DNA of 64,000 nt from Roseivivax halotolerans (GTDB taxonomy: Bacteria; Pseudomonadota; Alphaproteobacteria; Rhodobacterales; Rhodobacteraceae). A program made the translations under genes and the position numbers. This document shows positions 19,018 to 59,762 of this stretch, in pieces (position 1 is the stretch's first letter; each line of letters opens with the position of its first letter). The DNA lies in NCBI RefSeq assembly GCF_900115815.1, contig NZ_FOXV01000002.1:248001-312000 (forward strand), in the 5' to 3' direction. The notes below the pieces were generated by a model. The model was not told the DNA's origin, ran no database searches, and was given only the letters and a program-made list of their open reading frames with translations.

Positions 19018-19133
19018 GGGGGCTTGCTGCCCCCTCTTCGGGGCGTGCCGCCCCGAATTCACCCCCGCCGGTATTTGGGCCAACCCAAAGACAAGGGCGC
19101 GCGCTTTTGGTTTTGGGTTGGTGAAAATACCGA
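19018..19133. repeat. Dispersed intergenic repeat, copy 1 (inverted composite)
   Basis: Directly after the aroC stop: hairpin with arms GGGGGC/GCCCCC (19018-19034), hairpin with arms CGGGGCG/CGCCCCG (19039-19055), then AATTCACCCCC and the core CGGTATTTGGGCCAACCCAAA (19069-19089). After a spacer the same core returns inverted (19111-19132). The two cores could pair into one long stem. It lies in a convergent gap between aroC and ureG. Confidence 0.85.
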
Positions 19134-19173
19134 AACGCGCCCTCTCCGCATGCGCGGCGGCCGGGCGGAGACG

Positions 19174-19809
19174 CTACTCCGCCGCCTGCGCGGCAAGGTC
19201 CAGACCACCTATCTCGGACAAGGCGGCAATGACCGCCTCCGCCCCTTCGCCCTTGCGGAGTGCGGTAAAGAAGAAGGGTCGCCCGGCGCGCATGCGGGCC
19301 GCGTCCCGCTCCATCACCTCGAGCGACGCACCTACATGCGGGGCGAGATCGGTCTTGTTGATGACAAGGATGTCCGAACGGCAGATCGCGGGGCCACCTT
19401 TCCGCGGTATTTCTTCTCCCGCCGCGACATCGATCACATAGATCGTCACGTCGGCAAGCTCGGGCGAGAAGGTCGCCGAGAGGTTGTCGCCACCGGACTC
19501 GATCAGGATGAGATCGAGATCCGGGATCGCCACGTTGAGCTCGGCGATGGCGGCGAGGTTGATCGAGGCGTCCTCGCGAATCGCGGTATGCGGGCAGCCG
19601 CCCGTCTCGACGCCGCGAATGCGTTCGAGGGGCAAGACCTGCCGGCGCATCAGCTCCTCGGCATCCTCCTGCGTATAGATGTCATTCGTGATCACGGCCA
19701 TCGAGAGGCGCGGGCCGAGCGCGGCGCAGAGCGCGGCAGTCAGCGTCGTCTTGCCGGCGCCGACCGGGCCACCGATGCCGACGCGCAAGGGACCGTTGGG
19801 AGAGGACAT
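19174..19809 (-). CDS. ureG: Urease accessory GTPase UreG
   Basis: 211 aa. The P-loop [11 protein letters not shown] is near the N-terminus, followed by [29 protein letters not shown] (the CPH metal site), ESGGDNLS and the NKTDLA guanine-specificity motif. These define UreG of the HypB/UreG family. It uses GTP to drive nickel insertion into urease together with UreD, UreF and UreE. It is the last gene of ureCEFG and ends 41 bases from a repeat element. Confidence 0.97.
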
Positions 19810-19823
19810 TGGGCGGGCTCCTT

Positions 19824-20468
19824 TCAGGATCGGAAGAGTTTCGTCTGCAGCGTCTCGTGGCGCATCGCCGCGATGTCCATCAGTGGCGAGAAGGTGCCGA
19901 GATCATCGAGTTCGGCGCGCATCGCGTCATCCGACACCTCGGCCACGACCGGCACCAGTGACGCGATCGCGCGCTGCCCGTCGCTCTGGCCGAGCGGCAC
20001 GAGGCGCATCGCCGCGCCCGCATAGGTCGACACCGCGTTCAGCAGGAATGTCTCGAGCGCCGCACGAGGCTCGAGCGACAACAGATGCACCCCGCGGCCT
20101 GCGGCGACCGGATAGGCCATGTCTGGCAGATCGAGCCCCCAGACGGCGCGGACCGTGGCCGCGAAGGCCGCGCCCGTAAGCGCCGTCTCGCGCCGCCGAT
20201 GCGCGGCGCCAGAAAGCGCGGAGGCCAATTCGTCGAGCGCCGCGACGTCGTCACCGCGCGCGGCATGGGCGAAAAGAACCGCGTCCTGCCAGCCCGCGCC
20301 GTGTCGTGCCCAGGTCTCGAGCCATGCCTCCAGATCCTCGCCGGTCGCAAGGCCACCCTCGGCGACCAGCGTCTCGATCCCGTGCGAATAAGCGAAGCCG
20401 CCTGTCGGAAAGGCGGGTGAGAAGAGCTGATGAAGGGTCAGCCCGGCCTCAGCCATGGCTATGCTCAT
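19824..20468 (-). CDS. ureF: Urease accessory protein UreF
   Basis: 214 aa, all helical. The N-terminal block [21 protein letters not shown] is the conserved UreF signature, and the C-terminus contains [22 protein letters not shown], also typical. The start is uncertain: ATG at 20468 overlaps ureE by 20 bases and ATG at 20456 by eight. It bridges the urease-UreD complex and UreG in nickel delivery. It is followed 14 bases later by ureG. Confidence 0.95.
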
Positions 20469-20928
20469 GCGGGCCGTGGCCGTGCGAATGGTCGTGACCG
20501 TGAGTGCGGCCGTGGCCGTAGGCCCCTCCCTCTGGAGTGAAGGGCTCCACCACCTCGCGCGTCTCGGCGCCGAGCCTGCCCAGAAGATCGGCCATGACGT
20601 GATCGCGCTGGATCAGAAGGCGAGATGCCTCGATTTGGCAGGGGGTGTGGCGGTTGCCGATATGCCAGGCGAGACGCACGAGATCGCCGCCCCTTATCTC
20701 AAGCAGCTCCTCGGGCGCGGCGGCGATGGCGATCTCGCCCGCCTCGGTGACCAGCACCCCGCCAGGATCGAGCGAGGTGGTCTGCGGCAGATCCACGAGG
20801 CAGCGCCGTCCGTCCTCGAGCGCGATCACCCGGCGGCGCAGGAAGCGGCCTTCGTAATCCAGCACCGCGCATCCGATCGGCGCGGCATGGGCGTGTCCGT
20901 GATAGGTGCGTGCGATAAAATCGGTCAT
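20449..20928 (-). CDS. ureE: Urease accessory metallochaperone UreE
   Basis: 159 aa. The N-terminal domain and the GDLVRLAWHIGNRHTPCQIE segment, with its metal-binding His, match UreE. The C-terminal tail is very His-rich: ten His in the last 22 residues, in [17 protein letters not shown], as in Klebsiella-type UreE that store nickel. It supplies Ni2+ to UreG. It starts three bases after the ureC stop and overlaps ureF. Confidence 0.96.
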   Translation of the reverse strand: MTDFIARTYHGHAHAAPIGCAVLDYEGRFLRRRVIALEDGRRCLVDLPQTTSLDPGGVLVTEAGEIAIAAAPEELLEIRGGDLVRLAWHIGNRHTPCQIEASRLLIQRDHVMADLLGRLGAETREVVEPFTPEGGAYGHGRTHGHDHSHGHGPHEHSHG

Positions 20929-20931
20929 GTC

Positions 20932-22671
<1,740 letters not shown>

Positions 22672-27319: not shown

Positions 27320-28186
27320 ATGCCCGAATTCCTGACCGTGAAAGAGCTCGCCGAGCTTCTGCGTATCAAGGAGCGCAAGGTCTACGACCTCGCCGCTTCG
27401 GGGTCCGTTCCGGTCTCGCGCGTCACCGGCAAGCTGCTGTTTCCCGAAAACGAGATCCGCGCCTGGATCGCGGGCGAAAGCACCCGGCCCGAACCCGACC
27501 GCACGCCGCGTCCGCCCGTCTTCCTCGGAAGCCACGATCCGCTGCTCGAATGGGCCCTTCGGCAAGCGCGGCCCGGTCTTGCGACGCTGTTCGACGGCTC
27601 GGGCACGGGATTGGCCCGGTTCGCGCGCGGTGACGGGTCGGCGACGGGTCTGCATATCCCCGGCGCGGACGGCGATTGGAATATCGCCGCGGTCGAAGAC
27701 GCGGCCGCCGGGTGCGATGCGGTGCTGATATCCTTCGCGCGCCGCCGCCGCGGCCTGATCCTGCGCCCTGACATGGCCGGCCGCGTGACATCGCTCGCGC
27801 ATCTCAAGGATCTCTGGATCGCGCCGCGTCCCTCGGGCACCGGGACCGACACGCTCTTTCGCCAGACGGTCGAGGAGGCAGGCCTCGCCCATGACGCCCT
27901 CCTCTTCACCGGCGTCGCCCAAAGCGAGGAAGACGCGGTCTTCGCGGTCAAGCACGAGGAAGCCGATACCGCATTCGGCCTCGAGGCGCTCGCCGCGACG
28001 CACGGGCTTACCTTCCTGCCCATCGCCGAGGAACGCTTCGACATCCTCGTCGACCGGCGCGCGGCCTTCGAGCCACCGCTTCAGGCCCTCTTCGCGGTGA
28101 TGCGGTCGGAGCCGTTCCGCGCCCATGCAGCGCAATTGGCCGGCTACGATGTCACCGGCGCCGGCGAGGTGCGCTGGAACGCCTGA
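27320..28186 (+). CDS. Excisionase-type HTH regulator with periplasmic-binding-like sensor domain
   Basis: 288 aa. Residues 3-52 form an excisionase/MerR-like helix-turn-helix (FLTVKELAELLRIKERKVYDLA, then a wing with LLFPENEIRAWI). The rest resembles a type II substrate-binding domain without a signal peptide (LGSHDPLLEWALRQ, then FARGDGSATGLH), ending in EPFRAHAAQLAGYDV. This architecture is known in one-component regulators thought to sense oxyanions or molybdate-like ligands. It faces away from trmO and ends at repeat copy 2. Given the nearby formate-dehydrogenase-type gene, a molybdate or formate link is tempting but only inferred. Confidence 0.82.
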   Translation: MPEFLTVKELAELLRIKERKVYDLAASGSVPVSRVTGKLLFPENEIRAWIAGESTRPEPDRTPRPPVFLGSHDPLLEWALRQARPGLATLFDGSGTGLARFARGDGSATGLHIPGADGDWNIAAVEDAAAGCDAVLISFARRRRGLILRPDMAGRVTSLAHLKDLWIAPRPSGTGTDTLFRQTVEEAGLAHDALLFTGVAQSEEDAVFAVKHEEADTAFGLEALAATHGLTFLPIAEERFDILVDRRAAFEPPLQALFAVMRSEPFRAHAAQLAGYDVTGAGEVRWNA

Positions 28187-28222
28187 CCGGCGCGCCCGGG
28201 TCAGCAGACCCGCGATCCGCTC

Positions 28223-28288
28223 CTTGGGTTGGCGCAAATACCGCGGGGTGAATTGGCGGCTCTGCCGCCAAGAGGGGCAGCGCCCCTC
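28223..28288 (+). repeat. Dispersed intergenic repeat, copy 2
   Basis: Core CTTGGGTTGGCGCAAATACC (from 28223) runs into GCGGGGTGAATT, then a hairpin with arms GGCGG/CCGCC and a second with arms AGGGGC/GCCCCT. It fills the convergent gap after the HTH regulator and overlaps the stop codon of the 133-residue gene by two bases. Confidence 0.85.
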
Positions 28289-28688
28289 AGACGCCGACAT
28301 CGGGGCCGAGGCACACCATTTCCTGCGCCTCGTCCGCCTCGTAGAGTTCCGTTCCGAACTCACCACCCTCGAAGACAGCGCGCAGGCCAGATCCTTCCTC
28401 GAAGAAGCTCCAGCATTGCGGCGCGGGATCGTCCTCGTAGACAAAGCAGATCTGGTCACCCTCGGGATACCAGATACCGTCCTTGCAGCGCCCATCGAGG
28501 AAGGACCAGCGCACGCGGCGGCCGGGCATATAACGCTCGATCCCGTAGGGAACGCCCGCTTCCGAGAAGGTCAGCGTCTTGCCGGCGACGTAGTCCTGGA
28601 ACTCTTGGGCGCTCATCGGGCTCTGGGCCGAGACCGGGCCAGAGAGGAGCAGGGCACAGAGGGCGGCGGCATATCTCATGGCCCTCAT
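28287..28688 (-). CDS. Secreted hypothetical protein coupled to alkB
   Basis: 133 aa. A signal peptide (YAAALCALLLSGPVSAQ) is followed by a small acidic domain with three or four Cys (GRCKDGIWYPEGDQICFVYED, then PQCWSFFEEG) and paired aromatics. The ATG at 28688 forms an ATGA overlap with the alkB stop, so coupling favours this start over the ATG at 28679. I do not know the family by name. The layout suggests a periplasmic disulfide-bonded domain; any link with hydrocarbon oxidation is from position only. Confidence 0.72.
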   Translation of the reverse strand: MRAMRYAAALCALLLSGPVSAQSPMSAQEFQDYVAGKTLTFSEAGVPYGIERYMPGRRVRWSFLDGRCKDGIWYPEGDQICFVYEDDPAPQCWSFFEEGSGLRAVFEGGEFGTELYEADEAQEMVCLGPDVGV

Positions 28689-29912: not shown

Positions 29913-31598
29913 ATGGCGCTCGATGACAGCAAGACACCGTGGAAATCCGGCCGCGGCAAGGGGCGCCCGATCCCCAAGGGCCGCGCGCTCGACGATACCG
30001 CCCACGACGAGGTCCGTGCGCTTCTCGGCGACCGGCCGCGGCGCCGCGACCTGCTGATCGAATTCCTGCATCTCGTCCAGGACACTTACGGTCATATCTC
30101 GGCGGCCCATGTCCGGGCTCTCGCCGAGGAGTTGAAGCTCGCGCAGGTCGAGGTCTACGAGGTCGCGACCTTCTACGCGCATTTCGACATCGTGAAAGAA
30201 GGCGAGACGCCGCCGCCCGCCCTGACCGTGCGTGTCTGCGATTCGCTCTCCTGCGAGCTGGCCGGGGCCGAGGCGCTGCGCGCGGCGCTCGAGGAAGGAC
30301 TCGATCCGTCGGAGGTCCGGGTTGTCCGCGCACCCTGCATGGGCCGCTGCGACACCGCGCCCGTCTGCGAGCTCGGGCACAACCATATCGATCATGCCAC
30401 GCCCGAGCGGGTAGAAGCCGCCATCGCGGCGGGCGAGACCCATGTCCATCTTCCCGATTACGAGGCGCTCGACGCCTACCGCGCGGAGGGCGGCTATGCC
30501 GCGCTCGGCATGTTGCGGAAAAGCGGCGACTGGGAACAGGTTCAGGACATGATGCTCTCCGCCGGTCTGCGCGGCCTTGGCGGGGCAGGCTTTCCCTCGG
30601 GCAAGAAATGGGGCTTCGTGCGCGCCGAAGCGGGCCCGCGCTACCTTGCGGTCAATGGCGACGAGGGCGAACCCGGCACGTTCAAGGACCGCTACTATCT
30701 CGAGCGCGTCCCGCACCTCTTCCTCGAAGGCATGCTGATCGCCGCCTGGGCGGTCGAGGCCGATCGCGTCTATCTGTATATGCGCGACGAATATCCGGCC
30801 GTCCTCGAAATCCTGCGCCGCGAGATCGCCGCGCTGGAAGAGGCAAAGATCGTCGTGCCGGGATATATCGAGCTGCGCCGCGGCGCGGGTGCCTATATCT
30901 GCGGCGAGGAAAGCGCGATGATCGAATCGATCGAAGGCAAGCGCGGCCTGCCCCGGCACCGCCCGCCCTATGTCGCGCAGGTCGGCATCTTCAATCGCCC
31001 TACCCTCGTCCACAACGTGGAGACGCTCTACTGGGTGGCACGCGTCTGCCGAGACGGCCCCGAGGTTCTCTCCGGCACCGAGAAGAACGGCCGCAAAGGG
31101 CTGCGGAGCTACTCGGTCTCGGGCCGCGTCGCCAAGCCCGGCGTCTACCTTCTGCCGGCGGGCTCCACGATCCGCGACATCGTCGAGGCCGCGGGCGGCA
31201 TGGCCGAGGGTCACGTCCTTAAGGCCTACCAGCCGGGGGGGCCGTCCTCGGGCCTTCTGCCCGCGACGCTCGATGACATCCCGCTCGATTTCGACGTCCT
31301 GCAGGAGCACGGCTCCTTCATCGGGTCGGCGGCGGTCGTGATCCTGTCAGACAAGGACAGCGCGCGCGGGGCCGCGCTGAACATGCTGCGCTTCTTCGAG
31401 GATGAAAGCTGCGGGCAATGCACGCCCTGCCGGGTCGGCTGCGAGAAGGCCGTGAAGCTGATGCAGGCCGAACGCTGGGACCAGGACCTCCTCGAAGAGC
31501 TGAGCCAGGCAATGGTCGACGCCTCGATCTGCGGTCTCGGCCAGGCCGCGCCGAACCCGATCCGGCTGGTGATGAAGCACTTCCCGGGCGAGGTTTGA
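29913..31598 (+). CDS. Fused NuoE-NuoF diaphorase, formate dehydrogenase beta-type (FdsGB fusion)
   Basis: 561 aa. Residues 30-180 are a NuoE-like thioredoxin fold with [2Fe-2S] Cys at 109, 114, 142 and 146. Residues 200-490 are the NuoF-like FMN/NADH domain, with GLGGAGFPSGKKW at 221-233 and GRGAYxCGEE-like GAGAYICGEESAMIESIEG. The C-terminus holds [4Fe-4S] ligands C500xxC503xxC506 and C540. Such fusions are the NAD-reducing subunit of soluble molybdenum formate dehydrogenases. No alpha subunit follows: a repeat and the convergent maeB come next. Confidence 0.88.
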   Translation: MALDDSKTPWKSGRGKGRPIPKGRALDDTAHDEVRALLGDRPRRRDLLIEFLHLVQDTYGHISAAHVRALAEELKLAQVEVYEVATFYAHFDIVKEGETPPPALTVRVCDSLSCELAGAEALRAALEEGLDPSEVRVVRAPCMGRCDTAPVCELGHNHIDHATPERVEAAIAAGETHVHLPDYEALDAYRAEGGYAALGMLRKSGDWEQVQDMMLSAGLRGLGGAGFPSGKKWGFVRAEAGPRYLAVNGDEGEPGTFKDRYYLERVPHLFLEGMLIAAWAVEADRVYLYMRDEYPAVLEILRREIAALEEAKIVVPGYIELRRGAGAYICGEESAMIESIEGKRGLPRHRPPYVAQVGIFNRPTLVHNVETLYWVARVCRDGPEVLSGTEKNGRKGLRSYSVSGRVAKPGVYLLPAGSTIRDIVEAAGGMAEGHVLKAYQPGGPSSGLLPATLDDIPLDFDVLQEHGSFIGSAAVVILSDKDSARGAALNMLRFFEDESCGQCTPCRVGCEKAVKLMQAERWDQDLLEELSQAMVDASICGLGQAAPNPIRLVMKHFPGEV

Positions 31599-31607: not shown

Positions 31608-31711
31608 CGCCCGCCTTGCGGGCGGCATGTCTGGCGCGATGAGCCCTTGGCTCATCGCGCGGTGCGAGGGCCCTGCCCTCGCGCTCCCGCGGTATTTAGG
31701 CCAACCCAAAT
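31608..31711 (-). repeat. Dispersed intergenic repeat, copy 3
   Basis: Three hairpins follow each other (7-bp arms from 31608, an 11-bp perfect stem at 31634-31660, and GCGAGGG/CCCTCGC at 31664-31682). The inverted core CCGCGGTATTTAGGCCAACC then runs to about 31711. It fills the convergent gap between the NuoEF fusion and maeB. Confidence 0.8.
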
Positions 31712-31718
31712 TATCAGA

Positions 31719-33998
31719 TCAGCCGTATTTCGAGACCGGGGTCCCCGCCAGCGCGGCCATGTTGAGCAGCCCTCGCGTTGTGATCGAGGGAGTCACGATG
31801 TGCGCGCGGTTGCCCATCCCCATGAGGATCGGACCGACCTCGAGCCCTTGCGCGGTCATCTTGAGGATGTTGCGCACGCCCGAGGCCGCATCGGCATTGG
31901 CGAAGATCAAAACGTTCGCCTTTCCGCTCATGCGGTTGTCGGGCAGAAGGCGCTGGCGCAGCTCGGGATCGAGCGCCGCCTCGACGCTCATCTCGCCTTC
32001 GTACTCGAATTCGCGCGGCGCGGCATCGAGCACGGCCAACCCCGCGCGAATTCGCTCCGCCGCCTCGCTGTTCTGGTTGCCGAATTGCGATTGCGAACAC
32101 AGCGCGATCTTCGGCTCGAGGCCGAAGCGCCGCACGTGCCGCGCCGCACCGAGGGCCGCTTGCGCGATCTGATCGGCCGTCGGGATGAAATGCACATGGG
32201 TGTCGGCGATAAAGAGCGGCCCGTCCTCCAGAATCATCATCGAGAGCGCGCCGTGCGGGTATTGCGTCTCGCTGCCGAGAACCTGCGTGACGTAGTTGAG
32301 GTGCCAGCGATATTCCCCGAACGTGCCGCAGATCAGGCTGTCGGCCTCGCCGCGATGCACCATCACCGCGCCGATCGCCGTCGAGTTCGTACGCATGATC
32401 GCGCGGGCAAGGTCGGGCGTGACGCCGCGCCGGGCCATGATCTCGTGATAGGTCTTCCAATAGTCACGGTAGCGCGGATCGTTCTCGGGGTTCACGATGT
32501 TGAAGTCGCGCTCGGGCCGGATCTCGAGGCCGAGCCGCTCGCAGCGCATGTTGATGACCTCGGGCCGGCCGATCAGGATCGGCTGCTCCGGCGTCTCTTC
32601 CAGCACGGCCTGGGCGGCGCGAAGGACGCGCTCGTCCTCGCCTTCGGCAAAGACGATGCGGCGGGAGGCTTCGGCGGCGGCATCGAAGACCGGCCGCATC
32701 AGGAGCGCGGAGCGATAGACGCTCGCGCGCAGCTTGGCCTTGTAGGCATCCATGTCCTCGATCGGGCGCTCGGCGACGCCCGAGGCCATCGCGGCTTCAG
32801 CCACCGCGACCGAGACCGTGGCCGAGAGGCGCGGATCGAAGGGTTTGGGGATGAGATAGTCGCGCCCGAAGGTCAGGCTTTCGCCGCGATAGGCCGCCGC
32901 GGCCTCGGCGCTCGTGGTCGCACGGGCCAGCGCGGCGATGCCCTCGACGCAGGCGATCTTCATCTCGTCGTTGATCGTCGTCGCGCCCACGTCGAGCGCG
33001 CCGCGGAAGATGAAGGGAAAGCAAAGCACGTTGTTGACCTGGTTCGGAAAGTCCGACCGGCCTGTCGCGATGATCGCGTCGGGCGCCACCTGGCGCGCGA
33101 GATCGGGCAGGATCTCGGGATTGGGATTGGCGAGCGCGAAGATGATCGGTGTCTGCGCCATCTTCTCGACCATCTCGGGCTTGAGGACATTCGGCCCCGA
33201 CAGCCCGAGGAAGAGATCCGCGCCCTCGATCACGTCACCGAGGGTCTTGGCGGTGCTGCCCTGAGCATAGGCCGCCTTTTGCGGCGTCATCTCGGTCTCG
33301 CGGCCCTCGTAGACGAGCCCGTCGATATCGCAGAGCCAGATGTTCTCGCGCTTGACGCCGAGCTTGACGAGCATGTTGAGGCACGCGATCCCGGCCGCGC
33401 CCCCGCCCGTCGAGACGACCTTCACGTCCTCCAACGTCTTTCCCGCGAGCTTCACCGCGTTCAAGGCCGCCGCCGAGACGACGATGGCGGTGCCGTGCTG
33501 GTCGTCGTGGAAGACGGGGATGTTCATCCGCTCGCGGCAGATCTCTTCGACCACGAAGCAATCGGGCGCCTTGATGTCCTCGAGGTTGATCGCGCCAAAA
33601 GACGGCTCAAGCGCGCAAACGATGTCGGCAAGCTTCTCGGGGTCGCTTTCGTTCACTTCGATGTCGAAGCAATCGATGCCGGCGAATTTCTTGAAGAGAA
33701 CCGCCTTGCCTTCCATCACGGGCTTCGAGGCGAGCGCGCCGATATTGCCGAGGCCGAGGACCGCTGTTCCGTTGGACACGACAGCGACGAGATTGCCGCG
33801 CGAGGTGTAATCACGCGCGGCTTTCGGGTCGCTTTTGATTTCGAGACAGGCCTCTGCAACGCCGGGCGAATAGGCCCGCGCAAGGTCGCGGCCATTGGCG
33901 AGCGGCTTGGTCGCGCGGATTTCGAGCTTTCCGGGTTTCGGAAACCGATGATAATCGAGCGCCTGCTGGCGCAGCGTGTCGCTGGTCTGGTCCGACAT
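31719..33998 (-). CDS. maeB: NADP-dependent malic enzyme (malic enzyme plus phosphotransacetylase-like domain)
   Basis: 759 aa, the long MaeB type. The first 430 residues are malic enzyme, with YSPGVAEACLEI, SNGTAVLGLGNIGALASKPV, VFHDDQHGTA and a Rossmann GGGAAGIACL. The rest is a phosphotransacetylase-like domain (RIVFAEGEDERVLRAAQ, then GNRAHIVTPSIT), usually regulatory rather than catalytic and sensitive to acetyl-CoA. It turns malate into pyruvate with NADPH. It is a single gene, convergent with the NuoEF fusion. Confidence 0.96.
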   Translation of the reverse strand: MSDQTSDTLRQQALDYHRFPKPGKLEIRATKPLANGRDLARAYSPGVAEACLEIKSDPKAARDYTSRGNLVAVVSNGTAVLGLGNIGALASKPVMEGKAVLFKKFAGIDCFDIEVNESDPEKLADIVCALEPSFGAINLEDIKAPDCFVVEEICRERMNIPVFHDDQHGTAIVVSAAALNAVKLAGKTLEDVKVVSTGGGAAGIACLNMLVKLGVKRENIWLCDIDGLVYEGRETEMTPQKAAYAQGSTAKTLGDVIEGADLFLGLSGPNVLKPEMVEKMAQTPIIFALANPNPEILPDLARQVAPDAIIATGRSDFPNQVNNVLCFPFIFRGALDVGATTINDEMKIACVEGIAALARATTSAEAAAAYRGESLTFGRDYLIPKPFDPRLSATVSVAVAEAAMASGVAERPIEDMDAYKAKLRASVYRSALLMRPVFDAAAEASRRIVFAEGEDERVLRAAQAVLEETPEQPILIGRPEVINMRCERLGLEIRPERDFNIVNPENDPRYRDYWKTYHEIMARRGVTPDLARAIMRTNSTAIGAVMVHRGEADSLICGTFGEYRWHLNYVTQVLGSETQYPHGALSMMILEDGPLFIADTHVHFIPTADQIAQAALGAARHVRRFGLEPKIALCSQSQFGNQNSEAAERIRAGLAVLDAAPREFEYEGEMSVEAALDPELRQRLLPDNRMSGKANVLIFANADAASGVRNILKMTAQGLEVGPILMGMGNRAHIVTPSITTRGLLNMAALAGTPVSKYG

Positions 33999-41187: not shown

Positions 41188-42813
41188 CTACAGCTCTTTC
41201 GCCTGCGCCCGCAGCTGGAACTTCTGGATCTTGCCGGTCGAGGTCTTGGGCAATTCCTCGAACACCACCTTCTTCGGTGTCTTGAAGCCCGCAAGCCGCT
41301 CGCGCGCGAAGGCGATCAGCGTGGCCTCGTCCACATCGGCCCCGGCTTTCAGTTCCACGAAGGCGCAGGGCACCTCGCCCCATTTCTCATCCGGCTTGGC
41401 GACCACCGCGCAGAGCGAGACCGCCTCGTGCTCCATCAGCACGCCCTCCACCTCCACCGAGGAGATGTTCTCGCCGCCCGAGATGATGATGTCCTTGGCG
41501 CGGTCCGCGATGCGGATATAGCCATCCTCCTCGAGGATCGCGATATCGCCGGAATGGAAATAGCCGCCCGTGAAACTCTCGCGCGTCGCTTCGGAGTTCT
41601 TGTAATACCCCTTCATGACGCCGTTGCCCCGGAACATGATCTCGCCCTTGGTCTCGCCGTCACGCGGCACCTCGGCCATCGCCTCGTCCGTCACGGTGAC
41701 ATGGTCGAGGAACGGCATCGCCACACCCTGCCGGGCCTTGAGATCGGCCCGCGCCGCGCCTTCGGTGCCATCCCATTTCCGCTGCCAGGTGCATTCGGTG
41801 CCGGGACCGTAGGTTTCCGTCAGCCCGTAGACATGGGTGACGTTGAAGCCCATCGGCTCGATCTTGGCGAGCGTCGAGGGCGCGGGCGGCGCACCGGCCG
41901 TGAAGACCTCCACAATCTGCGGGAAGTCGCGCCGCTCGTCCTCAGGCGCGTTGATGAGCGTGTTGAGCACGATGGGCGCGCCGCCGAAATGGGTGACGCC
42001 CTCCTCGGCGATGGCCTCGAAGATCGGCTTCGCGGCGATCTCGCGGCAACAGGCGAGCGTGCCGCCCACGGCAGGCATCATCCAGGTGTGGCACCAGCCG
42101 TTGCAGTGAAAGAGCGGGACGATCGTGAGGTAGACGGGGTTCAGCACCATCCGCCAGGACAGAACCTGCCCCATCGCGTTCAGATAGGCCCCGCGGTGAT
42201 GATAGACGACACCTTTGGGCCGACCGGTCGTGCCGGAGGTGTAATTGAGCGCGAGGCTCTCCCACTCATCCTCCGGCATGATCCAGCGTGCCTGCGGGTC
42301 GCCCGTCTCGAGCAGATCCTCGTAGGTCATGTGCCTGCCCGTGGCGCTGCGGCCCGCGACCTCGTCGACGATCTCGACGATCTCGGGGCCCCCGCCCTCC
42401 ATCTCCTCCCGCGCGGCCTCGGCTAGCGGAACGAGGTCGCTGTCGACGAGCGCGATCTTCGCGCCGCCATGCTCGAAGATATAGGCGACCGTGCCGGTAT
42501 CGAGCCGCGTGTTGATCGCGTTCAGAACCGCACCCGCCGCGGGCACGCCGAAATGCGCCTCCGCATGCTGCGGGATGTTCGGCAGAAGCGTAGCCACCAC
42601 GTCGCCGGAACCGATCCCCTTGCCGGCGAGCGCCGAGGACAGCCGGGAGACGCGCGCGTGATACTCGGCGTAGCTCTTGCGCCAGGATTTGTAGACCACC
42701 GCCAGATGATCGGGGAAGACATCCGCCGCGCGCCTCAGGAAAGACAACGGCGTCAGTGGCGTGTAATTCGCCTCGCAGCGTTCAAGCCCCGTCTCGTCCG
42801 GCAACCAGCCCAT
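41188..42813 (-). CDS. Acyl-CoA synthetase, AMP-forming
   Basis: 541 aa from the ATG at 42813; the frame continues upstream but the extra part crosses the repeat. The adenylate-forming signature YTSGTTGRPKGVVYHHRG, the hinge ADRAKDIIISGGENISSVEV and the catalytic Lys in KTSTGKIQKF are complete. The overall type resembles medium-chain acyl-CoA ligases, including methylmercaptopropionyl-CoA ligase DmdB of roseobacters, but the acyl substrate cannot be set by eye. It activates a carboxylic acid with ATP and CoA. It is alone on its strand here. Confidence 0.88.
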   Translation of the reverse strand: MGWLPDETGLERCEANYTPLTPLSFLRRAADVFPDHLAVVYKSWRKSYAEYHARVSRLSSALAGKGIGSGDVVATLLPNIPQHAEAHFGVPAAGAVLNAINTRLDTGTVAYIFEHGGAKIALVDSDLVPLAEAAREEMEGGGPEIVEIVDEVAGRSATGRHMTYEDLLETGDPQARWIMPEDEWESLALNYTSGTTGRPKGVVYHHRGAYLNAMGQVLSWRMVLNPVYLTIVPLFHCNGWCHTWMMPAVGGTLACCREIAAKPIFEAIAEEGVTHFGGAPIVLNTLINAPEDERRDFPQIVEVFTAGAPPAPSTLAKIEPMGFNVTHVYGLTETYGPGTECTWQRKWDGTEGAARADLKARQGVAMPFLDHVTVTDEAMAEVPRDGETKGEIMFRGNGVMKGYYKNSEATRESFTGGYFHSGDIAILEEDGYIRIADRAKDIIISGGENISSVEVEGVLMEHEAVSLCAVVAKPDEKWGEVPCAFVELKAGADVDEATLIAFARERLAGFKTPKKVVFEELPKTSTGKIQKFQLRAQAKEL

Positions 42814-42884: not shown

Positions 42885-43020
42885 AGGGGCGCTGCCCCTC
42901 TTCGGGCCCTTGGCCCGAATTCACCCCGCGGTATTTGCGCCAACCCAAAGACCAAAGGCGCGCGTCCCCTCTTTGGATTGGTAAAAATACCGCGGGGAGC
43001 GCGAGGGGCTGGCCCCTCGC
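42885..43020. repeat. Dispersed intergenic repeat, copy 4 (inverted composite)
   Basis: Hairpins AGGGGC/GCCCCT (42885-42899) and TTCGGGCC/GGCCCGAA (42901-42919) precede the core CCGCGGTATTTGCGCCAACC (from about 42926). After 20 bases the core returns inverted (42971-42997) and is closed by a GCGAGGGG/CCCCTCGC hairpin (43001-43020). Unlike most copies it lies between two divergent genes, so it sits near promoters. Confidence 0.85.
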
Positions 43021-43098
43021 CGGCGCAACCTCGCCCAAAGGCGTCGGCCCCGGATCAGCGTCGTTGCGCGGCACCAAGCTTTGGCTATCAATGGTTCC

Positions 43099-43755
43099 AT
43101 GATCATTTCGCCCGGGCGCGGCTACATCTTCGTGCATATCCCAAAGACCGGCGGCACGTCGTTGGCGCTGGCGCTCGAAGCGCGCGCCCATCGCGACGAC
43201 ATCCTGATCGGCGACACGCCAAAGGCGCAGGCCCGGCGCAACCGGGTCAAGACATTGAATGGCGCGCAGGGGCGCATCTGGAAGCACAGCCGCCTTGCCG
43301 ATATCGAAGGCGGGGTGCCGCAGGACACGCTCTCGCGGCTTCAGGTGGTCACGCTCGTGCGCAACCCCTGGGACCGGATGGTGAGCTATTATCACTGGCT
43401 GCGGGCGCAGGATTTCGATCATCCGGCCGTCCATCTCGCCAAACGAACCCATTTCGAGGGGTTTCTCTCAGATGAGGCAAACGCGGCGGCGATCGCGGCG
43501 CAGCCCTATCCGTCCTATGTCACCTGGTCTAACGGCGCGGTCGCACCGGCGCTCTATCTGCGCCTCGAAGCGCTGGACGAGGATCTGCCCGCCTTCGAAA
43601 AGGTGCTCGGCTTCAAGCTCGACATGCCGCATGTGAACCGCTCGACGCGAGAGGCGGAATGGCAAGGGTATTACACACCGGAGCTGCGCGACCGGGTTGC
43701 AGAGCTCTGCGCGCCCGACATCACGCGATTTGGCTATAGGTTCGAGTCGACCTGA
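43099..43755 (+). CDS. PAPS-dependent sulfotransferase family protein
   Basis: 218 aa from the ATG at 43099. The PAPS 5'-phosphosulfate loop is HIPKTGGTS (residues 13-21) and the 3'-phosphate site is LVRNPWDRMVSYYHWL (87-102), followed by a short helical domain. This is the small bacterial type 2 sulfotransferase that moves sulfate from PAPS to a sugar or other hydroxyl. The acceptor is unknown and no polysaccharide genes surround it. It lies directly after repeat copy 4 and has no close partner. Confidence 0.87.
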   Translation: MIISPGRGYIFVHIPKTGGTSLALALEARAHRDDILIGDTPKAQARRNRVKTLNGAQGRIWKHSRLADIEGGVPQDTLSRLQVVTLVRNPWDRMVSYYHWLRAQDFDHPAVHLAKRTHFEGFLSDEANAAAIAAQPYPSYVTWSNGAVAPALYLRLEALDEDLPAFEKVLGFKLDMPHVNRSTREAEWQGYYTPELRDRVAELCAPDITRFGYRFEST

Positions 43756-43762
43756 CCGAGAC

Positions 43763-43868
43763 GTTGCAAAGCGCGAATTTGCAAACTTCTCTGGATCAAG
43801 CACAAAACTTCGCAATGCAAGCGGCTTTGCAAAAATTTGCAAGCGCTAACAGGCGATTTCTGCAAACT
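43763..43868 (+). promoter_or_regulatory. TTTGCAAA-type operator cluster upstream of prpE
   Basis: The gap before prpE holds GTTGCAAA (43763), a perfect TTTGCAAA (43778-43785), a second perfect TTTGCAAA (43826-43833) followed two bases later by TTTGCAAG (43836-43843), and CTGCAAAC near 43860. Repeated TTTGCAAA elements are, as I recall, the reported target of ScfR-family regulators such as PccR of Rhodobacter sphaeroides, which respond to short-chain acyl-CoA. The link to prpE fits well. Confidence 0.65.
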
Positions 43869-43971
43869 TTTTGTCGCAGAGCGCCGCGAATGTTGCCGCG
43901 ACGCTTGCCAGACCCGCCTGACGCTCCGTAACACGTGACCGCAGGGACCAAGGAGCGAGGGAGGCCATCAC

Positions 43972-51200: not shown

Positions 51201-52295
51201 TCAGGAGAGCGCGGCGCGAAAATCGTCGTAGGTGAAATCACGGACCAGCCGCTCCGTGCCGTCCAGCTCACGGATCGCGATGGCGGGCATCTTCACCCCG
51301 TTGAACCAGTTCTTCTTGACCATCGTGTAACCGGCCGCGTCCTCCACGGACAGCCGGTCCCCCGCCTTCAGCGGTTTCGGAAACCGGAATTCGCCGAAGA
51401 TATCGCCCGCGAGGCAGGACTTGCCGCAAATCATCCATTCCTCGGGGCCCTCGTCGGGGCTCATCTTCGCGCTCTCGCGATAGATCAGCAGATCGAGCAT
51501 ATGCGCCTCGATGGAGCTGTCGACGATGGCGAGGTTCTTGCCGTTATGGAGGGTGTCAAGCACCGTCACCTCGAGCGTCGTCGATTCGGTGATCGCCGCC
51601 TCTCCCGGCTCGAGATAGACCTGCACCTCGTTTTGCCCGGCGAAGCGCTTCAGCCGCTCTGCGAACTTCTCGAGCGGGTAACCCTCGCCGGTAAAATGGA
51701 TGCCGCCGCCGAGGCTGATCCAGTCCATCCGGCGAATGAGATGGCCGAAGCGTTGCTCGATCATGCCGAGCATGGCGTCGAAGCGCTCGAAATCGGCATT
51801 CTCGCAATTGTTGTGGAACATGAAGCCCGACACCATGTCCGCCACGGGCTCGATATCCTCGGGCGCGTGTTCTCCGAGCCGCGAGAAAGGCCGCGCGGGA
51901 TCGGCGAGATCGAAATCGGAGGTAGACACGCCTGGATTGACGCGAAGGCCCCGCACATGGCCCGCGCTCTGGCTCTCGAAGCGCTTCAGCTGCGCGGCGG
52001 TGTTGAAGATCACCTTGTCGGAGACCTGCATCACCTCGTCGATCTCGTGATCGGCCCAGGCCACGGAATAGGCATGCGTTTCCTTGCCGAAGGTCTCGGC
52101 GCCGAGCTTGACCTCGAAGAGCGATGACGAGGTCGTTCCGTCCATGTACTCGCGCATGAAGTCGAAGACGCCCCAACTTGCGAAACATTTCAGGGCCAGA
52201 AGCGATTTCGCGCCCGAAGTCTCGCGCAGCCAGGCGATTTTCTCCATGTTCGGCAAAAGCCGGGACTTGTCGATCAGATAATAGGGCGTCTGCAT
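51201..52295 (-). CDS. nspC: Carboxynorspermidine decarboxylase
   Basis: 364 aa from the ATG at 52295; the upstream in-frame ATG lies next to a repeat and was not used. It is a fold III PLP enzyme: TPYYLIDKSRLLPN at the start, the PLP Lys in SLLALKCFASW, and SLGGGIHFTGEGYP for phosphate binding. It decarboxylates carboxynorspermidine or carboxyspermidine to make (nor)spermidine without S-adenosylmethionine. It is first in the two-gene unit. Confidence 0.93.
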   Translation of the reverse strand: MQTPYYLIDKSRLLPNMEKIAWLRETSGAKSLLALKCFASWGVFDFMREYMDGTTSSSLFEVKLGAETFGKETHAYSVAWADHEIDEVMQVSDKVIFNTAAQLKRFESQSAGHVRGLRVNPGVSTSDFDLADPARPFSRLGEHAPEDIEPVADMVSGFMFHNNCENADFERFDAMLGMIEQRFGHLIRRMDWISLGGGIHFTGEGYPLEKFAERLKRFAGQNEVQVYLEPGEAAITESTTLEVTVLDTLHNGKNLAIVDSSIEAHMLDLLIYRESAKMSPDEGPEEWMICGKSCLAGDIFGEFRFPKPLKAGDRLSVEDAAGYTMVKKNWFNGVKMPAIAIRELDGTERLVRDFTYDDFRAALS

Positions 52296-52390
52296 GGCGG
52301 GCGCTCCTCGAGGCCGGTCGGTCGCGTTCGGGGGCGATATAAAACCGCGCCCCCCCCGGGGCAAGCCGACGGACCAAGGCCCGCCCCATC

Positions 52391-52468
52391 TCCTTGGGTT
52401 GGCGAAAATACCGCGAGGGGTGAATTCGCGCCTCCCCGAGGCGCGAAGAGGGGGCTCGCAGCCCCCTC
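52391..52468 (+). repeat. Dispersed intergenic repeat, copy 5
   Basis: The core TCCTTGGGTTGGCGAAAATA begins at 52391, followed by CCGCGAGGGGTGAATT. A hairpin with arms CGCGCCTC/GAGGCGCG and a second with arms GGGGGC/GCCCCC close it near 52468. It lies between the M20 gene and nspC, both on the minus strand. Confidence 0.85.
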
Positions 52469-52534: not shown

Positions 52535-53698
52535 TCACGCCGCCGGCAGACGCCGTTCCACGATCTCGGCCCAGAACGAACAGCCCGCCGGGATCGCATC
52601 ATCGTTGAAATTGTATTCGGGGTGATGCACCGCCGCGCTGTCGCCGTTGCCCACAAGGATATAGGCGCCCGGCCGCTCCTCCAGCATGAAGGCGAAATCC
52701 TCGCCGCCCATGACCAGCTCCGCATCCGCGCACTCGCCGGACACGGCCCGGCCCGCCTCGGCGGCATACCCCGTCTCACGCTCGGAATTGACCATCACGG
52801 GGTAATTGCGGTGATACTCCACCGCCGCCGTCGCGCCGAATGCCCGCGCGGTATGGTCAGCGATCTCCGTCAGGCGCGTCTCGGCCAGATCGCGCATCTC
52901 GGGGGCGAGCGTGCGAACGGTGCCTTTCATCGTCACCCGCTGCGGGATCACGTTGAACGCTTTCGACGAGGTCTCGAAGGAGGTGATGGATACGACGATC
53001 TGGCCCACCGGATCGGCGTTCCGCGCGGCGATGCTTTGCGTTGCCGTCACGATCTGCGCCGCCGTCACCGTGGGATCGATCGTCTCGTGCGGTTTGGCGG
53101 CATGACCGCCCCGCCCTTCGACAACGATCTCGAACACATCCGTTGCCGCGAAGAAGGCCCCGGGCCGGATCGCGAAGCTGCCGACGGGCATCCCCGGCCA
53201 ATTGTGCATGCCGTAGACCTCCTCGATCCCCCAGCGCGCCATCAGCCCGTCCTCGCACATCTCACGGCCGCCGCCGCCACCTTCTTCGGCCGGCTGGAAG
53301 ATCACCACGCAGGTGCCGTCGAAATTCCGCGTCTCTGCCAGATACTGTGCGGCCCCGAGCAGCATCGCCGTATGTCCGTCATGCCCGCAGGCATGCATCG
53401 CACCATCGGTTTTCGAGGCATAATCGAGCCCCGTCGCCTCGTGGATGGGCAGGGCGTCCATGTCCGCGCGCAAGCCCACCGTGCGGCCCGACGCGGTGCT
53501 CCGGCCCTGGATCACGCCGACGACGCCGGTGCGACCGATACCTTCGACCACCTCGTCGCAGCCGAACTCGCGCAGCTTTTCGGCGACGAAGGCCGAGGTG
53601 CGATGCGTGTCGAACAGGATCTCTGGGTGCTGATGCAGATCGCGCCGCCAGGCGGTGATCTCGTCATGCATCTCGGCAAAGCGGTTCTTGACCGGCAT
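52535..53698 (-). CDS. M20 family amidohydrolase (aminoacylase/hippurate hydrolase type)
   Basis: 387 aa from the ATG at 53698. The M20D signature is clear: WRRDLHQHPEILFDTHRTS at the start, the metal motif MHACGHDGHTAMLLGAA, the Glu pair in QPAEEGGGGGREM, and VMGGEDFAFMLE near the end. It removes acyl groups from N-acyl amino acids or related amides. It follows the DadA-like gene by 84 bases, with argE further upstream, and may belong to an amino-acid scavenging set. Confidence 0.92.
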   Translation of the reverse strand: MPVKNRFAEMHDEITAWRRDLHQHPEILFDTHRTSAFVAEKLREFGCDEVVEGIGRTGVVGVIQGRSTASGRTVGLRADMDALPIHEATGLDYASKTDGAMHACGHDGHTAMLLGAAQYLAETRNFDGTCVVIFQPAEEGGGGGREMCEDGLMARWGIEEVYGMHNWPGMPVGSFAIRPGAFFAATDVFEIVVEGRGGHAAKPHETIDPTVTAAQIVTATQSIAARNADPVGQIVVSITSFETSSKAFNVIPQRVTMKGTVRTLAPEMRDLAETRLTEIADHTARAFGATAAVEYHRNYPVMVNSERETGYAAEAGRAVSGECADAELVMGGEDFAFMLEERPGAYILVGNGDSAAVHHPEYNFNDDAIPAGCSFWAEIVERRLPAA

Positions 53699-57484: not shown

Positions 57485-57554
57485 CTCGAAAACCGGTTTT
57501 CAAACCCTGGTTGCGAGCCTTATATCGCACCGTCCCGTGCGGAAAGGAAAGACC

Positions 57555-58808
57555 ATGGCATACCACCCGAAATCGGACTTCATGCGCGTCATGATGGAGC
57601 GCGGCTTTCTCGCCGATTGCACCGATTACCAGGGCCTCGACGAGGCGTTCATCGCAGGCGTGGTGCCAACCTATATCGGCTACGATGCCACGGCCAAGTC
57701 GCTGCATGTGGGGCATCTTCTGAACATCATGATGCTGCGCTGGCTGCAGCAGACCGGTCACAAACCGATCACGCTGATGGGCGGCGGCACGACGAAAGTG
57801 GGCGATCCCAGTTTCCGCGCCGATGAGCGCCCCCTGCTCACACCCGAAGCGATCGACGCGAATATCGATGGCATGAAGCAGGTCTTCGCCAAGTACCTCA
57901 CCTATGGCGACGGGCCGACCGATGCCTTGATGCTCAACAACGCCGAATGGCTCGACGGGCTCAATTACCTCGAGTTCCTGCGCGATATCGGCCGGCATTT
58001 CTCGGTGAACCGCATGCTGAGCTTCGAAAGCGTGAAGTCGCGCCTCGACCGCGAGCAATCGCTGTCCTTCCTCGAGTTCAACTACATGATCCTCCAGGCC
58101 TACGACTTCCTGGAGCTCAACCGTCGCTACGGCTGTCTTCTGCAGATGGGCGGCTCAGATCAATGGGGCAACATCGTCAACGGTATCGACCTGACGCGCC
58201 GCGTTCTCGACCATGAGATCTTCGGCCTGACCTCGCCGCTCCTGACCACCTCGGACGGGCGCAAGATGGGCAAGAGCCAGGGCGGCGCGATCTGGCTCAA
58301 CTCGGATATGCTCAGCCCCTATGAATTCTGGCAATTCTGGCGCAACACCACCGATGCCGATGTCGGCCGGTTCCTCAAGCTCTATACCGAGATCCCCGTC
58401 GAGGAATGCGAACGCCTCGGCGCGCTCGGCGGGGCCGAGGTCAACGAGGCCAAGATCGTGCTGGCCGACGCGGTCACGACGCTCTGTCACGGAGCGGAGG
58501 CTGCCGAGACCGCAAAGGCGACCGCGCGCGAGGTCTTCGAGAAGGGCGGCGCGGGTGACGATCTGCCGACGCTCGAACTCAGCCGCGCCGAGATGGCGGA
58601 GGGTATTTCCGTCGTGCAGCTCATCGTGCGCGCGGGCCTTGCCAAGTCGGGCAAGGACGCCAAGCGGCTGATTTCCGACAATGGCGCGCGGCTCGACGAT
58701 GCGCCGCTGACCGATCCCGGCCTCGTCCTCGACGCGGGCGCGCTGGCATCGCCGGTCAAGCTGTCGGCGGGCAAAAAGCGGCATGCGCTGGTGAAACTCG
58801 GGGATTAA
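57555..58808 (+). CDS. tyrS: Tyrosine-tRNA ligase
   Basis: 417 aa from the ATG at 57555 with GGAAAGGA upstream; longer frames run through anmK and were rejected. The class I motifs are HVGHLLNI for HIGH and KMGKSQGG for KMSKS, and [18 protein letters not shown] holds the tyrosine site. An S4 RNA-binding domain is at the C-terminus ([19 protein letters not shown]). It charges tRNA-Tyr in the cytoplasm. Confidence 0.97.
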
Positions 58809-58834
58809 CCGGCTCTTCATGGGCCGCGCGCAAG

Positions 58835-59692
58835 ATGCGGCCCATGACGCAGCTGCCTCTTCAGCAATCGCCGGAATTTCACAATGCCGCCCGCGCCCTC
58901 GGCTGGCCCGTCATGCGCCGGGTTCTGGGCGCCCGCGAGGTGAATCTGATCGGTCGTACCACCCCGTTCGGCCGGGTGACGCTTCTGTCTCGCGCCGATC
59001 CTCCCCTACCGGAGGAGCTGCGCACGATCGGCGGACTGATCCTCGTGAATGCCGAAACCGGTCCGTGCCACCCCGGTCTGATGGCCTTGCGCGCCCCGCG
59101 CCAGCACGCCCTTGTGGAACTTGCGCCCAAGGGCGCGATGCGCGCGGGCCTCAGGCAGAAATGGCGCAATCGCCTGAGCGCGGCCGAACGCAGCCGTCTT
59201 TCCACGACGCATGGCGCGCTTCCCCCGAACCCCGACCATTGGCTTTTGAAGGCGGAGGCCGCGCAGGCGCGGCGGCTGCGCTATGCAGGCTGGCCCCCGG
59301 CACTCTCCTCGGCCTGGGCAAAGGTCAACCGCGGGGAGGCCCGCCTGTTCGAGGCGCAGCTCGGCGGACGCCCGATCGCGGGGCTGGTCCTTCTCCGGCA
59401 CGGCCCTTCGGCCACCTACCAGATGTCCGTCACGACGCCCGAGGGGCAGCGCATGAACGCGATGACACTGCTTCTGTGGCGGGCGATGTGCTGGGCGTCG
59501 AAGGTTGGCTGCCACGATCTCGACCTCGGCCATATCGACCCCGCCAATGCCGGGCTGACGCGGTTCAAGACCGGAACGGGCGCGAGGATCCGCACGCTCG
59601 GCCCAACCTTGCTTTGGCATCGCAGCCTGAGCGCCCTGCCCCTGGGCCGCTCACACGACACGCGGGGTCAGGCGGCATCGCCTCATGTATGA
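58835..59692 (+). CDS. GNAT/FemAB-like acyltransferase
   Basis: 285 aa; the ATG at 58844 is an alternative start. The C-terminal half looks like the acceptor half of a FemAB/GNAT fold: KWRNRLSAAERSRL, then LFEAQLGGRPIAGLVLLRHG, YQMSVTTPEG and GCHDLDLGHIDPANAGLTRF. Proteins of this type transfer amino-acyl or acyl groups, sometimes to peptidoglycan or lipids; the donor and acceptor are unknown here. It follows tyrS by 26 bases and ends at repeat copy 6. Confidence 0.72.
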   Translation: MRPMTQLPLQQSPEFHNAARALGWPVMRRVLGAREVNLIGRTTPFGRVTLLSRADPPLPEELRTIGGLILVNAETGPCHPGLMALRAPRQHALVELAPKGAMRAGLRQKWRNRLSAAERSRLSTTHGALPPNPDHWLLKAEAAQARRLRYAGWPPALSSAWAKVNRGEARLFEAQLGGRPIAGLVLLRHGPSATYQMSVTTPEGQRMNAMTLLLWRAMCWASKVGCHDLDLGHIDPANAGLTRFKTGTGARIRTLGPTLLWHRSLSALPLGRSHDTRGQAASPHV

Positions 59693-59694
59693 GC

Positions 59695-59762
59695 CGGCCG
59701 GAAATACTCGCGGGGGTGAATGCCGTGCCCCGCACGGCAGAGGGGGCCGCCAGCCCCCTCTC
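59695..59762 (+). repeat. Dispersed intergenic repeat, copy 6 (head partly lost)
   Basis: The element begins GGCCGGAAATACTCGCGGGG, without the TTGGGTTGG head, and continues TGAATGCCG. Hairpins with arms TGCCGTG/CACGGCA and GGGGGC/GCCCCC follow. It starts two bases after the stop of the acyltransferase gene and ends in the convergent gap before the cyclophilin gene. Confidence 0.78.

What the first reader, a model, noticed from the sequence alone, without database searches (positions are those of the whole stretch)
19018..59762. A dispersed intergenic repeat with six copies, two of them inverted composites
Six gaps share the same element: a core close to CTTTGGGTTGGCGAAAATAC, then CGCGGGGTGAATT, a variable GC hairpin, and a GGGGGC/GCCCCC-type hairpin. 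Copies lie at 19018-19133, 28223-28288, 31608-31711, 42885-43020, 52391-52468 and 59695-59762. The core and the last hairpin are conserved while the middle hairpin keeps its pairing but changes its bases, a sign of selection on structure. Copies 1 and 4 carry a second core in inverted order. Four of six lie between convergent genes, where a bidirectional terminator or a REP-like mobile element would fit. No coding gene explains it.
Basis: partly seen in the sequence, partly recalled or inferred. Interest (0 to 1): 0.75.

Follow-up and report, generated by a model that had tools for sequence, protein, structure and literature searches.

The report
Dispersed DNA repeats with triple-helix signature
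Bacteria of one family carry small DNA repeats at the ends of genes, and most end in three short tracts that change together in the mirror-image way needed for a three-stranded DNA fold, which hints that evolution maintains triple-stranded DNA in living cells.

Summary
The repeat is real and far larger than six copies: the genome holds 68 copies of its core (at most 1 mismatch) and eight congeners hold none. X2 pairs with X2'; X1 is the mirror image (reversed, not complemented) of X2, in 61 of 68 copies (shuffled tails: mean 0.9). In the GTGAATT linker class 152 of 179 copies match exactly in length and bases (free shuffle maximum 98, within-genome maximum 125). Of 8 copies with A in X2, 6 mirror it exactly, 2 match neither way, none is a direct repeat. 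This is the signature of a class I intrastrand triplex, known as a kind from enterobacterial BoxC/PIT/TM_ECO motifs, here in another order, with shorter tracts and sometimes a hairpin in the third-strand loop. Box A of the core is genome-specific, AAATAYYC shared. The GTGAATT class occurs in 58 of 149 genera of the family and in 0 of 140 genomes outside it. Copies favour 3' ends of genes. Triplex formation, mover and function are unproven.

The parts
19018..19096 (-). Copy 1, main half: core + X1 GGGGG, linker TGAA-hairpin-GA, X2 GGGGG, X2' CCCCC; X2' side abuts the stop of gene 17914-19017(+); convergent with 19174-19809(-)
19112..19131 (+). Copy 1, second core in inverted order, without triplex module
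28216..28286 (+). Copy 2: core + X1 GGGG, TGAA-hairpin-GA linker, X2 GGGG, X2' CCCC; between convergent genes 27320-28186(+) and 28287-28616(-)
31666..31717 (-). Copy 3: core + X1 GGGAG, 3-nt linker CGC, X2 GAGGG, X2' CCCTC (no middle hairpin); between convergent genes 29913-31598(+) and 31719-33998(-)
42886..42956 (-). Copy 4, left half: core + X1 GGGG, TGAA-hairpin-GA linker, X2 GGGG, X2' CCCC
42965..43018 (+). Copy 4, right half: core + X1 GGGGAG, linker CGC, X2 GAGGGG, X2' CCCCTC; the two cores are 22 bp apart
52386..52465 (+). Copy 5: core + X1 GGGG (with an A as fifth base outwards where X2 has G: an imperfect mirror), TGAA-hairpin-GA linker, X2 GGGGG, X2' CCCCC; tandem genes 51201-52295(-) and 52535-53698(-)
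59682..59758 (+). Copy 6: box AAATAC only (no TTTGGGTTGG), X1 GGGGG, TGAA-hairpin-GA linker, X2 GGGGG, X2' CCCCC; between convergent genes 58844-59692(+) and 59811-60362(-)

Best explanation
A non-autonomous, REP/BIME-like DNA element family of one alphaproteobacterial family (Rhodobacteraceae-type; no call names the window's organism, named matches are Rhodobacterales), built of two modules. Module 1 is a core: a genome-specific box A (here TTTGGRTTGG), a variable spacer, and a shared box B (AAATAYYC). Module 2 is a short class I intrastrand triplex: on the core strand the order is third strand (X1), linker, purine strand (X2), loop, pyrimidine strand (X2'). When this strand is single (lagging-strand template, transfer, or negative supercoiling), X2/X2' form a hairpin and X1 folds back antiparallel along X2 as G.G-C and A.A-T triples. 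Shown: the anatomy, the three-way covariation, its mirror sense, the copy numbers and the 3'-end positions. Inferred: that the triple helix actually forms and is what selection sees; that the folded end plus core is the recognition site of an unidentified factor that spreads or holds the element (box A is shared by many copies of a genome but differs between genomes); that copies survive mainly at gene 3' ends because they do least harm there or help to insulate convergent transcription.
For: Mirror module in 61 of 68 own copies, 60 with n>=4 against a mean of 0.9 (maximum 2) for shuffled tails. GTGAATT class: 152 of 179 copies equal in length and bases; free shuffle mean 79.5, maximum 98; shuffle within genome mean 108.2, maximum 125; one copy per genome 38 of 46, mean 14.0, maximum 23; without the 11 loci whose search pattern touched X1, 147 of 173, maximum 99. 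Direction: of 8 copies with an A in X2, 6 are exact mirrors (GGGAG/GAGGG x3 in G123 and G126, GGGGAG/GAGGGG x2 in G039, GGGAGG/GGAGGG x1 in G088), none is direct. With 3-nt linkers and non-palindromic purine tracts, raw counts mirror/direct are 21/0 (n=6), 23/3 (n=5), 33/9 (n=4). X1 has no Watson-Crick partner of its own: exact rc(X1) in the core plus 40 nt before it in 2, and in the 30 nt after X2' in 1, of 36 A-bearing own copies. Linkers are 3 nt in 50, 7 nt in 1, hairpin-bearing in 10 of 61; TM_ECO also has a 3-nt loop there. Species-specific core: 68 here, 0 in 8 congeners, yet congeners carry the same module classes behind other cores, also at the same loci: 4 of 8 at copy 5, 2 of 7 at copy 3. 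Box A differs by genome. Spread: 25 of 34 core copies in 44 sampled G088 loci are inverted composites, closely similar by eye. Position: convergent 28, tandem 23+10, divergent 3, unclear 4 of 68; 51, 28+26, 7, incomplete 3 of 115 in eight other genera.
Against: No direct evidence of a triplex; tracts of 3-7 are short compared with the 9-nt stems studied in vitro. A-bearing changes are few and partly shared by descent (about five or six by eye), and three of the six mirror cases in the GTGAATT class come from loci found with a pattern that touched X1. Exceptions: 13 G-only copies of unequal length, 7 with A in X1 against G in X2 (copy 5 of the window is one), L384 with A in X2 only, L274 no element. 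Six more of 185 were dropped for lack of an X2 hairpin; of these L275 looks like a decayed copy whose A in X2 is not mirrored. 7 of 68 cores have no module. No mover found (only PF01797 searched, own genome only). The purine motif also allows T opposite an A-T pair; none of the 7 interpretable copies shows T, which could favour the pyrimidine motif on the other strand.
Confidence: 0.55

Rival explanations
1. Bidirectional transcription terminator or mRNA 3'-end stabiliser acting as ordinary RNA hairpins; X1 is an incidental G tract.
For: Preference for convergent and 3' positions; stable hairpins; at the locus of copy 5 the congener G127 has a canonical hairpin plus T-run instead; 31 of 178 GTGAATT-class copies have at least 5 T in the 8 nt after the last hairpin; element kept at one convergent Thioclava locus across species and at the same loci in several congeners.
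Against: 0 of 60 modules of this genome have TTTT there; no orientation preference in eight other genera (28 to 26), only 23 to 10 here; does not predict that X1 mirrors X2 nor a genome-specific core.
Confidence: 0.2
2. The triplex is real but forms on the opposite strand as a pyrimidine motif (class III, R-Y-H order), possibly in the mRNA of the gene whose 3' end faces the hairpin side.
For: Predicts exactly the same mirror covariation; no T seen in X1 opposite A-T (7 interpretable copies); pyrimidine-motif intrastrand triplexes are possible in RNA (PMC4666352 introduction); hairpin-first tandem orientation is commoner in this genome, 23 to 10.
Against: Needs runs of 3-6 protonated C+.G-C triples at neutral pH (general knowledge); no orientation preference in the other genera.
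Confidence: 0.12
3. X1 and X2 are alternative partners of X2' (a bistable switch).
For: The 146 of 179 equal all-G copies are equally compatible with it.
Against: It predicts direct repeats; 0 of 8 copies with A in X2 are direct, and n=6 gives 21 mirror to 0 direct.
Confidence: 0.04
4. A classical REP/BIME spread by a RAYT (Y1 transposase).
For: Intergenic palindromes, many copies, inverted pairs.
Against: No PF01797 match in this genome while 5 of 14 control genomes rang; no GTAG-type box next to the hairpin (motif recalled). Other carriers were not searched for RAYTs.
Confidence: 0.09

Closest known systems
Intrastrand triplex motifs BoxC / PIT / TM_ECO of enterobacteria (PMC4666352, parts read)
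   Same: Short intergenic multi-copy DNA with three tracts that can fold into a purine-motif intrastrand triplex; 3-nt loop beside the third strand; no strand bias; sometimes in inverted pairs
   Different: TM_ECO is class II (Y-R-RH) with 9-nt stems and near-constant sequence, more often upstream of genes; this one is class I (RH-R-Y), 3-7-nt tracts that covary, preceded by a core, optionally with a hairpin in the RH-R loop, and sits at 3' ends
REP sequences and BIMEs (with RAYT transposases)
   Same: Dispersed short palindromic intergenic elements, genome-specific sequence, single or as inverted pairs
   Different: No RAYT in this genome; no GTAG/GGAG box (recalled); three-strand rather than two-strand covariation
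Intrinsic (rho-independent) terminators
   Same: GC hairpins at gene 3' ends
   Different: No T-run in this genome's copies (0 of 60); core and mirror tract are not parts of a terminator
H-DNA mirror repeats
   Same: Purine mirror repeat
   Different: The complementary pyrimidine tract is on the same strand, so one strand alone carries all three tracts

Membership tests
Class I intrastrand triplex motif (RH-R-Y) | Three tracts on one strand: third strand mirrors the purine strand, pyrimidine strand complementary to it | tested here: met
   61 of 68 own copies; 152 of 179 GTGAATT-class copies
Class I intrastrand triplex motif (RH-R-Y) | Forms a triplex in solution | not testable with these tools
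   No biophysics available
BoxC/PIT/TM_ECO | Class II order Y-R-RH with 9-nt stems (pattern in PMC4666352) | tested here: not met
   Order is RH-R-Y, tracts 3-7 nt
BoxC/PIT/TM_ECO | Intergenic, no strand bias, sometimes inverted pairs | tested here: met
   within this genome a mild orientation bias (23 to 10) in tandem gaps
REP/RAYT | Cognate Y1_Tnp (PF01797) gene in the genome | tested here: not met
   own genome only
REP/RAYT | Conserved GTAG/GGAG tetranucleotide 5' of the palindrome (recalled) | tested here: not met
   Conserved neighbour is AAATAYYC
REP/BIME | Many dispersed intergenic copies, some as inverted pairs | tested here: met
   68 copies; 2 pairs with a 22-bp gap here; 25 of 34 core copies in the sampled G088 loci
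Intrinsic terminator | GC hairpin followed by a U tract | tested here: not met
   0 of 60 own modules with TTTT in 10 nt; in the GTGAATT class 31 of 178 have at least 5 T in 8 and 13 have TTTT
Rfam RNA family | Match at gathering score | tested here: not met
   The 2 matches in the window lie elsewhere; best sub-threshold hit at copy 5 is 17.7 bits against a 241-bit gathering score

The most novel reading that the evidence does not exclude
A whole bacterial family maintains, by compensatory mirror-image base changes, short DNA triple helices in single-stranded form at the ends of a dispersed element. The folded triplex plus a genome-specific core is the substrate of an undescribed mover or structural factor. 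This would be comparative-sequence evidence, of the kind that once proved tRNA and rRNA helices, for a DNA triple helix selected in living cells.
Probability: 0.4. Interest if true: 0.86.

Novelty: new variant of a known kind. Interest (0 to 1): 0.74.

Why it matters
Whether intramolecular DNA triplexes form and matter in cells is an old open question. The best bacterial case read here (TM_ECO, PMC4666352) has near-constant sequence, so selection on the fold is hard to read from it. Here nature supplies compensatory changes at several triple positions and several linker types, with distinct mirror and direct predictions, so the question becomes directly testable with short oligonucleotides and with genomes already sequenced.

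Tried and rejected
Chance or base composition: rejected. Alternative pairing of X1 with X2': rejected by A-bearing copies. X1 as an arm of its own stem: no exact partner in 33 of 36. Pre-core C tract as partner of X1: stays C-rich whatever X1 is, by eye. Core folding on its own (TTTGGG-TTGG-CCCAAA): only 15 of 68 spacers are CCC. RAYT: none in this genome. Phage origin: no match among phage records (one typed query). Literature: searches for the sequences (16 of 16, 10 of 96 and 12 of 16 papers listed) showed no listed paper on bacterial repeats; topic searches (2 of 2, 15 of 62, 15 of 40, 7 of 7, 10 of 10 and 0 listed) brought up PMC4666352 and no listed title on such an element in this family. 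PMC12306157 and PMC4666352 were term-searched in their main text: no Rhodobacter, Paracoccus or Roseobacter. The ITxF database of PMC4666352 and its supplements were not seen and may list some of these sites. So 'not described' rests on these searches of an open-access library only. The single genome-contig scan used too loose a pattern: 91 stretches, those listed being scattered over unrelated phyla, not used. Searches showed the wrong (5') side of the gene for congeners matched on the minus strand; one search repeats the comparison on the right side and replaces what I first read there. Insertion polymorphism between strains was looked for only in one Paracoccus pair and in Thioclava, where all have the copy.
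Full report
WHAT WAS CHECKED. The six places were read. The window is C31:248001-312000 of an unnamed 3.77-Mb genome in 45 contigs. The core TTTGGNTTGGNNNAAATACC with at most one mismatch occurs 68 times there, 0 times for the pattern read backwards, and 0 times in eight other species of the genus. In 119 other genera of the family 8 genomes have one match each, which is the level of the backward control there (8 genomes with one). So the repeat is real, and this version of the core is confined to one species among those searched.

ANATOMY. Aligning the copies shows: a C-rich lead-in; box A TTTGGRTTGG; a variable triplet; box B AAATACC; 1-5 bases; a purine tract X1; a linker; a purine tract X2; a short loop; X2', complementary to X2. 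In these 61 of 68 copies X1 is the mirror image of X2: GGGG/GGGG, GGGGG/GGGGG, GGGAG/GAGGG, GGGGAG/GAGGGG, GGAGAG/GAGAGG and so on (60 with tracts of at least 4; the same parser on shuffled tails gives a mean of 0.9, maximum 2). The parser asks for a mirror, so it cannot by itself tell mirror from direct. The other 7 are bare cores, one of them the inverted partner in copy 1. In the window there are seven modules; a shuffled window gives a mean of 0.1.

THE THREE-WAY COVARIATION. The GTGAATT class was collected mostly with patterns that say nothing about X1 (further DNA fetched). The exception is the 11 congener loci, whose pattern reached the first four positions of X1 with 3 mismatches allowed. 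Not all listed places were fetched, and G088 supplies 45 of the 179. Of 185 distinct copies, 177 have complementary inner hairpin ends (shuffled mean 101, maximum 112). Six were dropped for lack of an X2 hairpin: four chance pattern matches, one unclear (L393), and L275, which looks like a decayed copy with a broken stem and an unmirrored A. In the 179 left, the purine tract of X1, read outwards from the linker, equals that of X2 exactly in 152. Shuffling X1 among all copies gives a mean of 79.5 (maximum 98), shuffling only within each genome a mean of 108.2 (maximum 125); taking one copy per genome, 38 of 46 are equal (mean 14.0, maximum 23); without the loci 147 of 173 (maximum 99). The 27 unequal ones: 13 all-G copies of unequal length; 5 in which X1 runs on by one A beyond X2; 7 with an A in X1 against G in X2 (copy 5 of the window is one); one with an A only in X2 (L384); one pattern match without the element (L274).

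MIRROR, NOT DIRECT. All-G tracts cannot tell mirror from direct repeats; an internal A can. Eight of the 179 have an A in X2's purine tract: six are exact mirrors, at two different positions, in three lineages (G123 and G126; G039; G088), two (L274, L384) are neither, none is direct. The G039 and G088 cases came from X1-blind patterns; the three G123/G126 cases. For 3-nt linkers in all fetched family DNA (820 kb with overlaps, this genome over-represented, identical sequences counted once) non-palindromic purine tracts gave 21 mirror and 0 direct at n=6, 23 and 3 at n=5, 33 and 9 at n=4; these raw sets overlap and hold a few matches outside the element (L030, for example, and opposite-strand readings). 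The mirrors include loci in G127, G122, G121, G124, G005, G097 and, with the A at the outer end, G079 (L252). X1 has no exact Watson-Crick partner of its own near by in 33 of 36 A-bearing own copies. Copying DNA makes direct or inverted repeats, not mirror images (general knowledge), so selection on a fold is the natural source. Antiparallel purine-purine matching on top of a purine-pyrimidine hairpin is the definition of a class I intrastrand purine triplex (PMC4666352). The opposite strand would be class III (pyrimidine motif) and predicts the same covariation; the data do not choose between strands.

DISTRIBUTION AND EVOLUTION. The GTGAATT class is found in 58 of 149 genera of the family, the own one included (control 0 in all), and in 0 of the 140 genomes from other families among 142 searched in the class. 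Plasmid records with a similar stretch belong to Paracoccus, Salipiger, Tritonibacter, Marinibacterium, Pelagovum and Thioclava; only Paracoccus aminovorans and Thioclava were read. Box A is shared by many copies of a genome, sometimes in subfamilies, but differs between genomes, while AAATAYYC is shared. At the 3' side of the gene next to copy 5, four of eight congeners (G123, G126, G121, G124) carry the element with other cores and linkers (TCC, TTT, CGC, CGC against TGAA-hairpin here), G127 has a canonical terminator-like hairpin with a T-run, and no module was seen in G120, G122 and G125; beside the gene next to copy 3, two of seven congeners with that gene (G127 with CGC, G122 with TGT, in the other orientation) carry it (read by eye). 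Other copies in G123 and G126 show TCC, TGAATT and AGCGC-type modules behind one common core. So positions are partly kept while cores differ between species and module types mix behind one core. In G088, 25 of 34 core copies in 44 sampled loci are composites of two inverted cores, closely similar by eye, which speaks for recent spread. In Thioclava, a convergent SseB-MYG1 locus keeps the module across species, but for one base in the inner hairpin loop, while box A and flank diverge, which speaks for local constraint.

POSITION. By a simple codon-usage gene finder trained on the window. In this genome: convergent 28, tandem hairpin-first 23, tandem core-first 10, divergent 3, and 4 where the finder drew a gene through the copy (copy 4 is such a case, the start at 42813 being judged by eye). 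In eight other genera, GTGAATT class only: convergent 51, tandem 28 and 26, divergent 7, incomplete 3 of 115. So copies favour 3' ends, without a general orientation.

HOW IT MOST LIKELY WORKS. Shown: a two-part element with a three-tract module under covariation. Inferred: on the core strand, when single-stranded, X1-X2-X2' folds into a short triplex next to the core; an unknown factor that reads the core recognises it, and copies persist at 3' ends. The mover is not a RAYT of this genome; other enzymes and other genomes were not searched. Terminator action is possible for some copies (31 of 178 in the GTGAATT class with a T-rich tract) but not by the usual signal in this genome (0 of 60).

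RELATION TO KNOWN THINGS. BoxC/PIT/TM_ECO motifs are the nearest kind: DNA triplexes shown in vitro, 9-nt stems, class II, near-constant sequence, no assigned function, linked by their authors to genome instability (PMC4666352: abstract, introduction part 1, ITxF methods, results parts 1-2 and section 18 read, passages of the discussion). Their finder asked for stems of 6-15 and loops of 1-6, so modules with 3-5-nt tracts or a hairpin in the loop would be missed, while the 6-nt, 3-nt-linker ones could be in their database, which I did not see. I therefore file it as a new variant of a known kind (class I triplex repeat), REP-like in behaviour but not shown to be a RAYT-REP.

LIMITS. 

Noticed in passing
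window 52493 (-) and L015, L022, L021, L061, L038 downstream of the module: A second repeat around CTGATCGTGCCGATCAT followed by a GC hairpin sits next to several copies and is also present at the loci of copy 5 (G123, G126) and copy 3 (G127) in congeners.
   Followed up: partly
window about 31633-31661; L009: A hairpin GCGCGATGAGCC..GGCTCATCGCGC lies beside copy 3 and, nearly identical, beside another copy elsewhere in the genome.
   Followed up: no
G088 loci L306-L345: Composite repeats in G088 have a left end CCTCCGGCGGGAGTATTT and often a right flank with a GGCGCACCTCCGGTGC-like hairpin, so the mobile unit may be longer than the element described.
   Followed up: partly
G088 C1 end, C7, C11, C13, C15; G005 C1, C4, C12, C21; G039 C13; G098 C28: Several copies lie within about 10-140 bp of contig ends, suggesting that assemblies break at them (repeat or hard-to-sequence structure); two of the G005 ends share the same sequence, so a longer duplication explains at least those.
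   Followed up: partly
window 17712-17813 (-): TPP riboswitch (RF00059, 72 bits).
   Followed up: no
window 22201-22488 (+): Match to Rfam 5_ureB_sRNA (115.7 bits) antisense inside a 580-codon coding gene; probably conserved coding sequence rather than a proven RNA.
   Followed up: no
window 43021-43971: About 950 bp right of copy 4 without a clear gene by codon usage; possibly a decayed gene.
   Followed up: no
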